Part shown: positions 42,831 through 45,958 of the stretch, piece after piece
Position numbering within the stretch: the first letter of the stretch is position 1
Layout of the letters: each line of letters starts with the position of its first letter
NCBI GenBank assembly: GCA_029706075.1
Contig: JAINUG010000047.1
Location: 1,310,675-1,374,674, forward strand
Reading direction: 5' to 3'
Length of the DNA stretch: 64,000 bases
DNA from: Aldrovandia affinis
Taxonomy: Eukaryota > Chordata > Actinopteri > Notacanthiformes > Halosauridae
Position numbers and translations under genes: made by a program
Notes under the pieces: model-generated
What the model saw: only the letters and a program-made list of their open reading frames with translations
What the model was told of the DNA's origin: nothing
Databases searched by the model: none

Positions 42831-43408
42831 TGTGGTGTCCCCAGGGGTTGGGCGACACTCACGGACCTTGCAGAGGGCGTAGGCAAGTGTAAGAACACGG
42901 AGGAGGCAGTAATATCAGCAACAATTATGATTTATTGTACAAACAAACACGAAACGCAGGGTGGGGTCTTTTGGGGAATACAAACACAAAGTCCACAATC
43001 CTTGTCTCTTTGTCAATGTCCGTAATCCAAATCCACAATCCAGGTCCAAGTTCCGTTGTCCAATCCGTCGTCAAAATCCAAAGCAGCAATCCAAATTCAA
43101 ACACAAAAAACAAACACACTTTCAAAACTCTCTCTCTCAAAAACTCTCTCCAAAAACTCTCTCCAAAAACTCTCAAAAACTCTCTCTCTTCATACCACTC
43201 CTTCCCACGCACGTTCCGACTCCTCTCCAAGAACAATGGGATCGAGTCCTTTAAATAGGCCTTGCAATGGCCTTCAGCTGGTCGTTTGCTCCCCATGCCT
43301 GACTTCGTTCAGGTGTTGCGGTGGCATGCTGGGAAATGTAGTGAAAATGGCTGCCATGTGTTGTAGGCCAGGCAGCCATTTCCTAGTGCAGCCCATCGGG
43401 CTGCCACA
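42831..43408 (-). repeat. 3' LTR of the gripap1-carrying element
   Basis: 578 bp. On the minus strand it starts TGTGGCAGCC and ends GGACACCACA. A TATA-like TATTTAAAGG lies at about 43250 and a poly(A) signal AATAAA near 42930 (both minus strand), fitting a U3-R-U5 layout. Confidence 0.88.
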
Positions 43409-44025
43409 CACCCTCCTCCTCAGCTCTGACCTTGGGAGGGCTGAGCGGCCTATTCCCAGCGGCCACCAGGAGGGTCCCCCTCTCCAGGTCCACTCAGGCA
43501 GTTTTCCACCCGGGTCAAACGTCCAGATCCAATCTCCATTCGCCTGAAAAAATGTCTGGCAGACATTAATGAGTGACGCAAGTTGCTCACCTTTTCTGCC
43601 ACAAAATGGCCACCAGTGGGTACAGGCTCTGGGCTCCACGGACGGAGCGGTCACCGCTCCTGTTCTGGTCTTCACCAACGTTCCCTGGCTCCACCAGTGC
43701 ACGTGATGCAGCTTCATCATCTGGCGTCCTCTCTTGGGCCTTTTCCGCCACTGCCACGTTGCTTCCATGTGGTCAAGTGGGGTAACTGGGGAAAACACAC
43801 TCTTCAGATGGTTAGCTTTATTCTTTACTTTATTTTTCATATTGGCATCTCCTTTCCACAGACGCTTCCCACGGTCCTTTCGTTTACAAGTCAGTCTATT
43901 TTGTTTACCATTTTTCTTCAGATGAGAATTTCCAATATCCCCTTTTCTTCTTTCTTTTTAATGTTAGTGAGGGAGATGGACTTACCACGTCAGGAGATGG
44001 TCGGGTGCTCAAACAGGCCTCGGCC
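43409..44025 (-). other. 3' part of the element interior, possible intron
   Basis: No known domain is encoded. On the minus strand a good donor (GTG|GTAAGT at 43985) and acceptor (TTTTCCCCAG ending at 43786) would define a 200-nt intron just after the ORF's stop. A second donor/acceptor pair (43590 and 43544) is only 47 nt apart, probably too short. A frame of about 150 codons crosses this area (minus, from 43840), rich in Trp, with no recognised similarity. Confidence 0.4.
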
Positions 44026-45408
44026 TTAATTAGAGGCCTTCCTCAACCCTATGGTCCCCCATAGCTCCTCTAGGCTCCCTTGAAGGTCCGGCAGGCTGAG
44101 TGGGACTGAGGACCATTGTCCCCACTCCAATGTCTGGTCATCCTCTCCTGCTGGCTCCATTGGCTGTGAGAACTCCACCTGTGTGCTAGCGTCTTGGGTG
44201 ACAGGAACACACTTTACAACGTCCAGCTCTTCACTCACCCCTTTCAGTCGGTCTTGTAGGTCCAGCACAGTCTCGGCTTGGACCTTCAGTACTTCCCGAA
44301 ATGCATTCTCTGTGGCCCGCTGCTGGGCTTCCATCTCCGCCATTTTCCCCTGAAGCTGTGCGGTTTGCTCCAGCTACAGCTTCTGGACCTGCTCCTGGTG
44401 CTCCAGCGCACTCTTCTCCGCCGTCTCATCCGCCTCTTTGAGTCTGCGCTTGAACCATCCCTTGGTGCCCTCCATGGACTGGATTTGAGCCTGCCGCTTC
44501 TCCACCGTCTGCTGTATGCTCTCCAGCTCCCGAGTGCGGGCCTTCTCGTCGTGGAGCTGTGAGCGGATCTCCTCCTCGGTGCGGTTCTTGTCCTCGTGCA
44601 GGCCGCACAGCTCCTTCTCGTAGCGCGCCCGCACGCCCAACACCTCCTTCTCGTGCTGCAGCCACGCGTCGCTCAGCTCCTCCTCGTGCCGCGACTTCTC
44701 CTGCGCCACGTCGATGGCCAGCTCGTCCAGCATGGCCTTGCGCTTGTCCACCGTCTTCCTGGTCTCCTCCAGCTCCTGCTGGAGTTTGTCCTTCTCTTGG
44801 CCCAGTTCAGTCAGCTGCTCCAGGAGCCGGCTGTTGGCGCGGTTCACCTCCTGCAGCTGGGAGCTGACGTCATCTCTCTGGGCCAGGAGCTTCTCCTGCT
44901 CGGTCTGCCTCTGCTGCAGCTCCACGTTCATCTCCTGCATCTTCAAACACTGTCGCTGCTCATCCTCACGCATCTGGGTTAGGGCTCTCACCTGCTCTTT
45001 GAGCGCCAGGTTGTGGGACTCGACACGCCTCATCTCATCGCCATGGGACGCCTTCTCCTTTTCCATCTCCCCAGCCATGATTCCCAGCACTCCCAGGGAG
45101 TCCATGTGGTGCTCCTCTCGCAACTTCATCACCGCCAGCAAGTGGCGCTCCTCTGAGGCGCTCACCTCCAGCTTTGCCTTGCACAGCTCAAGCTGGGCAC
45201 TCCGCTTCAGCTGTTGGACCTCACGGAGGGTGACACGCCATTGGTCCTCCACCATGGCTGCCCGTCTTTTCAGTCTCTCCATCTCTTCCTTCATGGAGTC
45301 CGTTGCACAAACCAAAGAAGAATCCTGCTGCACTACCTCCTCTTGCCTATAGGTGCCCTCTGCCCGCATTCTCCACCATATGTGGTGTCCCCAGGGGTTG
45401 GGCGACAC
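44026..45408 (-). CDS. Captured GRIPAP1 (GRASP-1)-like coiled-coil ORF
   Basis: The frame has 461 codons with one internal TAG at 44374-44376, so 344 residues are read before the stop. Residues 40-340 are an almost continuous coiled coil rich in Glu, Lys, Gln and Leu. Residues about 166-330 match GRIPAP1 as I remember it: ANSRLLEQL (181), KRKAMLDELA (222), HEKEVLGVRARYEKEL (252), DEKARTRELE (287) and KGWFKRRLKEAD (316). GRIPAP1 is a Rab4-effector coiled-coil protein of recycling endosomes. The first Met lies in LTR sequence; MKEEMERL (residue 39) is a likelier start. The frame is intronless and lies within an LTR element, so this is a retro-captured host sequence. After the TAG the frame continues with another coiled coil (MAEMEAQQRATENAF) and an acidic end. 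Confidence 0.8.
45361..45378 (-). promoter_or_regulatory. Primer-binding-type site next to the 5' LTR
   Basis: Two bases after the LTR end (minus strand) is TGGTGGAGAATGCGGGCA, beginning with TGG as expected for a tRNA-primer complement. The matching tRNA was not assigned. Confidence 0.5.
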
Positions 45409-45958
45409 TCACGGACCTTGCAGAGGGCGTAGGCAAGTGTAAGAACACGGAGGAGGCAGTAATATCAGCAACAATTATGATTTATTGTACAAACAAACAC
45501 GAAACGCAGGGTGGGGTCTTTTGGGGAATACAAACACAAAGTCCACAATCCTTGTCTCTTTGTCAATGTCCGTAATCCAAATCCACAATCCAGGTCCAAG
45601 TTCCGTTGTCCAATCCGTCGTCAAAATCCAAAGCAGCAATCCAAATTCAAACACAAAAACAAACACACTTTCAAAACTCTCTCTCTCAAAAACTCTCTCC
45701 AAAAAACTCTCTCCAAAAACTCTCAAAAACTCTCTCTCTTCATACCACTCCTTCCCACACACGTTCCGACTGCTCTCCAAGAACAATGGGATCGAGTCCT
45801 TTAAATAGGCCTTGCAATGGCCTTCAGCTGGTCGTTTGCTCCCCATGCCTGACTTCGTTCAGGTGTTGCAGTGGCATGCTGGGAAATGTAGTGAAAATGG
45901 CTGCCATGTGTTGTAGGCCAGGCAGCCATTTCCTAGTGCAGCCCATCAGGCTGCCACA
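45381..45958 (-). repeat. 5' LTR of the gripap1-carrying element
   Basis: 578 bp, same length as the other LTR. Its differences are GC->AC near 45758, C->G near 45772, G->A near 45870 and G->A near 45949, plus two 1-base length changes in A runs. Confidence 0.88.

What the first reader, a model, noticed from the sequence alone, without database searches (positions are those of the whole stretch)
42831..45958. Non-autonomous LTR retroelement carrying a GRIPAP1-like host ORF and no gag/pol
Between two complete LTRs there is only one long frame, and it strongly resembles the cellular coiled-coil protein GRIPAP1 (GRASP-1) over about 165 residues, including ANSRLLEQL, KRKAMLDELA, HEKEVLGVRARYEKEL and KGWFKRRLKEAD. 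Capture of a host gene is well known for retroviruses (oncogene transduction) and for a few plant LTR elements. A small fish LTR element built around an endosomal coiled-coil gene is, as far as I know, not described. Seen: LTRs, TSD, ORF. From memory: the GRIPAP1 match. Inference: capture and trans-mobilisation.
Basis: partly seen in the sequence, partly recalled or inferred. Interest (0 to 1): 0.88.

Follow-up and report, generated by a model that had tools for sequence, protein, structure and literature searches.

The report
LTR element with captured GRIPAP1 fragment
A small retrovirus-like jumping element, almost certainly from a deep-sea halosaur fish, carries a fused reading frame, about half of it copied from the fish's own gripap1 gene, where such elements normally keep their own genes, and relatives of that fused frame lie at dozens of places in the halosaur genome.

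Summary
The finding holds. Window 42831-45958 is a minus-strand LTR element: two 578-bp LTRs (573 of 577 aligned bases identical), a 4-bp CTAC duplication, a primer-binding-site-like and a polypurine stretch, and no gag or pol recognised. Its frame starts at an ATG inside the primer-binding site. Residues 149-331 match GRIPAP1: 172 of 183 identical to the gripap1 of the halosaur Aldrovandia affinis, at most 158 of 183 to 13 other fish. A tree fits one capture in that lineage. The first 146 residues, and 99 codons beyond an in-frame stop, are not GRIPAP1 and are of unresolved origin: the frame is a chimera. Gene models of other species imply host introns inside the captured stretch, so the template was probably spliced RNA. 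Related frames occur in 67 annotated Aldrovandia proteins on about 60 contigs, several sharing the same junctions, so the chimera was amplified after it formed. Not shown: that other copies lie between the same LTRs, which partner moves them, or whether the protein does anything; the genome search gave no answer in 13 attempts. Closest known: maize Bs1 and crocodilian ERVs with captured mRNAs. New variant of a known kind.

The parts
45381..45958 (-). 5' LTR (578 bp); TATTTAA at 45807-45801 and AATAAA at 45486-45481 on the minus strand
42831..43408 (-). 3' LTR (578 bp), 573 of 577 aligned bases identical to the 5' LTR
42827..42830 (.). target-site duplication CTAC, left copy
45959..45962 (.). 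target-site duplication CTAC, right copy
45361..45378 (-). primer-binding-site-like 18-mer TGGTGGAGAATGCGGGCA, 2 bases inside the 5' LTR; complementary to the 3' end of vertebrate tRNA-Ala as I recall it (tRNA identity recalled, from no call)
   Evidence: only match in the window at up to 3 mismatches
44377..45369 (-). chimeric ORF, 331 sense codons, ATG at 45369-45367 inside the primer-binding site
44932..45369 (-). N part of the ORF, 146 residues, coiled-coil-like composition, not GRIPAP1, origin unresolved
44377..44931 (-). GRIPAP1-derived part (183 residues align to residues 406-588 of Aldrovandia GRIPAP1, P0126)
44374..44376 (-). in-frame stop TAG of this copy; other predicted copies read on past this point
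44326..44373 (-). 16 further GRIPAP1-like codons after the stop (LEQTAQLQGKMAEMEA)
44029..44325 (-). T part: 99 open codons, not GRIPAP1, origin unresolved
43409..43427 (-). polypurine-tract-like stretch abutting the 3' LTR (core GAGGAGGAGGG at 43421-43411)
   Evidence: read by eye

Best explanation
This is a non-autonomous LTR retroelement whose interior coding capacity is a chimeric coiled-coil ORF: an N part (and, past an in-frame stop, a T part) of unresolved origin joined to the middle of the host protein GRIPAP1. Shown: the LTR/TSD/PBS-like/PPT-like anatomy, the GRIPAP1 homology, closest relationship to the gripap1 of Aldrovandia affinis, and the dispersal of the chimera with shared junctions. 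Inferred: spliced gripap1 RNA was joined to an LTR-element RNA, most likely by template switching during reverse transcription; the chimeric RNA kept promoter, primer site and polypurine tract; it is copied and integrated in trans by proteins of an autonomous LTR element. The ORF is most likely a passenger: nothing here shows selection on it, and this copy carries a stop.
For: LTR pair, TSD and termini; PBS-like 18-mer unique in the window; PPT-like stretch. GRIPAP1 part 172/183 to Aldrovandia GRIPAP1 against 138-158 (of 182-183) for 13 other fish species. Tree of 44 rows: all 29 element rows used (window plus 28 of 67 Aldrovandia proteins) separated from all 15 gripap1 rows (96/84), and Aldrovandia gripap1 plus elements separated from the other 14 gripap1 rows (99/92). 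67 Aldrovandia proteins with the family, 60 distinct contig lengths, 110 member sequences. Segment map: of the 67, 63 have the GRIPAP1 part, 23 have N plus GRIPAP1, 35 have M plus GRIPAP1, 9 have GRIPAP1 plus T. Exact junction strings recur: the window's N/GRIPAP1 junction in 4 proteins (P0001, P0002, P0009, P0122), an M/GRIPAP1 junction in 8, a GRIPAP1/T junction in 10. Host introns inside the captured stretch: clean deletions or insertions in gene models of other species recur near host residues 499, 533, 571 and 598.
Against: No second LTR-bounded copy was seen; all other copies are automated gene models of Aldrovandia, known here only as proteins. No autonomous partner with this LTR was found. 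Intron positions are inferred from predicted isoforms, not from a host gene sequence. Aldrovandia as source of the window is inferred. The frame length alone is not significant (74 of 2000).
Confidence: 0.85

Rival explanations
1. A processed gripap1 retrocopy made by LINE machinery that happened to land inside an LTR element.
For: The captured stretch appears intronless (inferred), and LINE sequence surrounds the element.
Against: The GRIPAP1 part is a middle fragment fused in frame to non-GRIPAP1 sequence on both sides, with the same junctions in many dispersed proteins; the ATG lies inside the primer-binding site, so the frame abuts the LTR with no room for a gag remnant before it; no poly-A tract ends the GRIPAP1 part.
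Confidence: 0.05
2. The ORF is kept by selection and serves the element or the host, for instance as a structural helper protein or as a competitor of GRIPAP1 on endosomes.
For: The frame is open for 331 codons with 172 of 183 residues as in the host; N and GRIPAP1 parts stay in frame in many gene models. GRASP-1 (GRIPAP1) is an endosomal coiled-coil protein (PMC2808209, passages).
Against: Gene models are biased towards open frames; this copy has a stop; several models run into a shifted frame (P0001, P0006, P0013, P0020, P0077, P0090, P0093, P0103). [quoted passage not shown] mapping by position, not aligned). An open frame of this length is not rare at this composition.
Confidence: 0.15
3. 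The N/M part is a remnant of the parent element's own Gag, so that the ORF is a Gag-host fusion, as in oncogene-carrying retroviruses.
For: P0106, the most diverged N+M relative (70% and 80%), begins with a CX2CX4HX4C zinc-knuckle spacing (read by eye). N/M was found only in Aldrovandia proteins (and beside GRIPAP1 hits).
Against: Pfam gave no zinc-knuckle match in P0106 at E <= 1; P0106 is a gene model and may be a fusion; a fast-evolving host gene or one outside the searched length ranges (about 189-2187 aa) is not excluded.
Confidence: 0.25
4. An assembly or annotation artefact.
For: Aldrovandia gene models are visibly fused with neighbouring genes.
Against: The element itself is read from the window DNA with matching LTRs, TSD and termini, and 60 distinct contigs hold the family.
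Confidence: 0.02

Closest known systems
Bs1 of maize (LTR retroelement with segments of three host genes; seen in passages of the review PMC13317346)
   Same: LTR element carrying segments of host genes, none full length, joined into a hybrid ORF; non-autonomous as I recall it.
   Different: Plant; [quoted passage not shown] Bs1 is low in copy number as I recall it, whereas this chimera is on about 60 contigs. Here only one captured gene is identified.
Crocodilian ERVs with captured KIT-ligand or nectin3 mRNA (PMC4299795, abstract and passages)
   Same: Vertebrate LTR elements that took up a host mRNA and multiplied with it.
   Different: Those are ERVs whose captured ORF spans a host mRNA and is kept beside viral genes or in place of env; here all recognisable viral genes are missing and only a middle fragment of the host protein is present, fused to other sequence.
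Zebrafish DrERVs with cellular genes between LTRs (PMC8672886, abstract and passages)
   Same: Fish LTR pairs with cellular genes and no viral genes.
   Different: The passages describe genes lying inside LTR pairs and their regulation; they do not show intron loss, chimerism or multiplication as a family.
TRIM/LARD elements (recalled; TRIM listings)
   Same: LTRs, PBS, PPT, no gag/pol.
   Different: TRIM and LARD elements as defined carry no host-derived ORF and differ in size; the interior here is 1972 bp.

Membership tests
LTR retrotransposon, non-autonomous | two near-identical LTRs in direct orientation with TG...CA ends | tested here: met
   573 of 577
LTR retrotransposon, non-autonomous | target-site duplication of 4-6 bp | tested here: met
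   CTAC, 4 bp
LTR retrotransposon, non-autonomous | primer-binding site next to the 5' LTR | tested here: met
   18-mer 2 bases inside the LTR; that it fits tRNA-Ala is recalled, not tested
LTR retrotransposon, non-autonomous | polypurine tract next to the 3' LTR | tested here: met
   AGAGCTGAGGAGGAGGGTG abuts the LTR (by eye; one pyrimidine-interrupted stretch)
LTR retrotransposon, non-autonomous | no gag, protease, RT or integrase | tested here: met
   five interior pieces without a Pfam match at cut-off; not all frames scanned
LTR retrotransposon, non-autonomous | several LTR-bounded copies and an autonomous partner in the genome | not testable with these tools
   The genome search gave no answer in 13 attempts
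Transduced (captured) host gene | homology to a host gene of the same species, closer than to other species | tested here: met
   that the window is Aldrovandia is inferred
Transduced (captured) host gene | introns of the host gene absent from the captured copy | tested here: inconclusive
   captured stretch is contiguous; host introns inferred from gene models of other species only
Transduced (captured) host gene | multiplication of the captured gene with the element | tested here: inconclusive
   the chimera is on about 60 contigs with shared junctions, but LTRs at those places were not seen
Processed (LINE-made) retrogene | poly-A tail and LINE-type target duplication, gene 3' end retained | tested here: not met
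   middle fragment only, fused on both sides, LTRs and 4-bp TSD
gripap1 gene locus | full gene with introns | tested here: not met
   only host residues 406-588 (and 590-605 past the stop) are present as one frame; full host protein P0126 is 882 aa

The most novel reading that the evidence does not exclude
The ORF is a fusion of an element-derived, perhaps Gag-derived, coiled coil with the GRIPAP1 core, kept because its coiled coils help the non-autonomous RNA or its product enter particles of an autonomous partner, or interfere with host GRIPAP1: a natural, host-restricted counterpart of Gag-oncogene fusions in an element that has lost all viral genes.
Probability: 0.1. Interest if true: 0.85.

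Novelty: new variant of a known kind. Interest (0 to 1): 0.62.

Why it matters
Capture of host mRNA by LTR elements is known from retroviral oncogenes, from maize Bs1 and from a few ERVs, but families in which the captured piece is the main recognisable coding content and which then multiplied are rare. Here one capture can be placed in a single fish lineage, with a source gene still present in the same species, junctions that can be read, subfamilies that share them, and a young insertion (LTR distance 0.0070; about 0.3 to 3.5 million years for assumed rates of 1e-8 to 1e-9). That makes the steps of capture, fusion and spread open to direct reconstruction of their order, and it warns that dozens of annotated 'genes' of Aldrovandia are parts of a mobile element.

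Tried and rejected
GRIPAP1 locus itself: rejected, only a middle part is present between LTRs. LINE-made retrocopy: rejected, see rivals. CEP85 as source of the N part: suggested by the Pfam label of hit P0124, rejected because the match lies at residues 1811-1964, away from the CEP85 domain at 881-950, and is itself a copy of the element frame. Origin of N, M, B and T parts: not found; 240-residue N/M/B piece, 47 hits, all with an Aldrovandia name, proteins of about 221-702 aa; 192-residue piece, about 688-2187 aa, 263 hits of which the best 120 were listed: besides GRIPAP1 only Aldrovandia models matched beyond it. Pfam and PDB gave nothing useful for the ORF, P0106 or P0126. Zinc knuckle in P0106: seen by eye, not confirmed by Pfam. 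Viral contigs: LTR 37-mer, empty-site 26-mer and ORF protein found nothing. An empty site elsewhere in the window: not found, only a weak 36-base match to the tail of the right flank. tRNA-Ala as primer in papers: seven papers listed, none of use. Literature for GRIPAP1 with retrotransposon: five papers listed, none about such an element by title and abstract start. Claim 'not in print' rests only in an open-licence library; searches failed.

An earlier count gave the stop codon as 44371-44373; that is wrong, it is 44374-44376.

Full report
Observation. The region 42831-45958 is bounded by two LTRs of 578 bases, 573 of 577 aligned bases identical with two 1-base indels, and flanked by CTAC on both sides. 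Read on the minus strand, the 5' LTR (45958-45381) holds TATTTAA at 45807 and AATAAA at 45486. Two bases inside it lies TGGTGGAGAATGCGGGCA (45378-45361), which occurs once in the window at up to 3 mismatches (0.02 expected) and which I recall as the complement of a vertebrate tRNA-Ala 3' end. A purine-rich stretch abuts the 3' LTR at 43427-43409. The element interrupts the region 3' of a LINE reverse transcriptase frame (40937-42250). A substitution distance of 0.0070 between the LTRs means a young insertion.

The frame. The interior has one long frame on the minus strand, 344 codons stop to stop; from the ATG inside the primer-binding site it has 331 residues. After the stop at 44374-44376 the same frame is open for 115 codons. 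A frame of this length is not remarkable at this composition (74 of 2000 Markov-1 sequences), so the case rests on homology. Five interior pieces showed no Pfam family at its curated cut-off.

GRIPAP1. A search of 5.8 billion proteins with the 344-residue frame gave 120 hits. By my count 62 of the 120 carry the name Aldrovandia affinis; the others are largely GRIP1-associated protein 1 of fishes, reptiles and mammals. The length rule of that search excluded full-length GRIPAP1; brought it in, including P0126, 882 aa, of Aldrovandia affinis. Over 183 residues (149-331 from the ATG; host residues 406-588) the frame is identical to P0126 at 172 places, to Albula at 158, to the 12 other fish species compared at 138-157 (two of them aligned over 182). 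The host protein itself is identical to Albula at 169 of 183. In a tree of 44 rows (the window, 28 of the 67 Aldrovandia proteins, 15 gripap1 proteins) every element row lies apart from every gripap1 row (support 96/84), and Aldrovandia gripap1 with the elements lies apart from the other 14 gripap1 rows (99/92). Many inner branches are weak (12 of 41 starred, 19 open) and one row, P0065, is long. The simplest reading is one capture on the halosaur line. The window's species is not given; Aldrovandia affinis, a notacanthiform elopomorph, or a near relative is inferred from 97% identity of the frame to P0002 and P0003.

Chimera and copies. The first 146 residues are not GRIPAP1. Using pieces of other copies as probes (N, M, B, the GRIPAP1 part, T) on 67 Aldrovandia proteins (62, P0121, four; the host gene P0126 set aside), 63 have the GRIPAP1 part, 26 the N part, 23 both, 35 M and GRIPAP1, 9 GRIPAP1 and T (matches at E <= 1e-4 and at least 50% identity; B matches are partly coiled-coil noise and are not relied on). 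These 67 lie on contigs of 60 distinct lengths and stand for 110 member sequences (contig length used as a stand-in for contig identity). Exact junction words recur: CLKMQEMN, the window's own N/GRIPAP1 junction, in P0001, P0002, P0009 and P0122; VEQVESILTEN in 8; MAEMEAQQRATE or MAEIEAQQRATE in 10. The cluster of P0002 counts nine members, which I did not see singly. Shared junctions at many places mean that the chimera multiplied after it formed, rather than arising many times.

Spliced template. In gene models of other species clean deletions and insertions recur near host residues 499-500, 533-535, 571-573 and 598, which is what exon borders would give; the element frame runs through all of them without a break. 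This is indirect. GC at third positions is 0.74 in the N part, 0.91 in the GRIPAP1 part and 0.60 in T, in keeping with separate sources.

Origin of the other parts. One search (47 hits) found N/M/B only in proteins with an Aldrovandia name; one search found nothing but GRIPAP1 and Aldrovandia models among the 120 listed of 263. P0106 joins a diverged N+M to a zinc-knuckle spacing (by eye) but Pfam does not recognise it. P0029 and P0109 are models that join the frame to Ty3-like protein pieces (for P0109, for P0029; Pfam rve in P0109); since such elements are common, this may be adjacency. N may be a Gag remnant, a fast-evolving host gene, or new sequence.

Mechanism. Most likely: spliced gripap1 RNA and an LTR-element RNA were joined during reverse transcription; the product kept LTR, primer site and polypurine tract, lost or never had gag/pol, and is moved by a partner. 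Later internal deletions produced subfamilies; the window belongs to the one with CLKMQEMN. The partner is unknown. A Ty3-like remnant in the window (14801-10773) has a SCAN-type gag frame and an integrase, but another primer site and only the first eight bases of its LTR (TGTGGCAG) in common; it is a lead at most. The captured stretch probably lies between the Rab4-binding and syntaxin-13-binding regions of GRASP-1 described in PMC2808209 (passages), so a GRIPAP1-like function is doubtful; oligomerisation is possible. Against function: the stop in this copy and shifted-frame ends in eight models.

What is missing. Aldrovandia copies are known here only as automated protein models, which favour open frames and are often fused with host genes. 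Two paper searches failed.

Known kinds. Bs1 of maize (PMC13317346, passages), crocodilian ERVs with KIT-ligand or nectin3 (PMC4299795, passages) and zebrafish LTR pairs with cellular genes (PMC8672886, passages) are the nearest. This case shares the principle with them and differs in that a host-gene fragment in a chimeric ORF is the main recognisable content of a multiplied family. I rate it a new variant of a known kind.

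Noticed in passing
window 10773-14802 (minus strand): Ty3/gypsy remnant: direct repeat 10867-11084 / 14585-14802 at 95%, SCAN-domain frame 14456-13764, integrase frame 12848-11901, and a primer-site-like TGGTGCCGAAACCCGGGATC near 14330 that I recall as tRNA-Phe type.
   Followed up: partly
window 38364-46110 (plus strand): LINE with endonuclease (38364-39206) and reverse transcriptase (40937-42250) frames and a TTTGA-repeat tail near 46100; the LTR element is inserted between them, in the LINE's 3' part.
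   Followed up: partly
window 30495-31094, 48463-49077, 51119-51694: Further reverse-transcriptase or endonuclease fragments, two of them below Pfam's curated cut-off.
   Followed up: no
P0046, P0054, P0077, P0095, P0122, P0123, P0124, P0183: Aldrovandia gene models in which pieces of this frame are joined to unrelated genes (Pfam labels: myosin X SH3, methyltransferase, GPCR, APOBEC-like, MAP7, doublecortin, CEP85/SH3BGR, GALNT); insertions or annotation fusions.
   Followed up: no
P0105, P0121: N part joined to a sequence DAGTSTMVTGDSIVRDV...VHCFPGARVLDI that is not GRIPAP1; Pfam recognises nothing in it above cut-off.
   Followed up: no
window 44374-44376: Besides the stop, several other copies are predicted to end in the shifted frame RWSTRSRSRSCSWS...FRGKWRR, so frame damage in this family is common.
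   Followed up: partly
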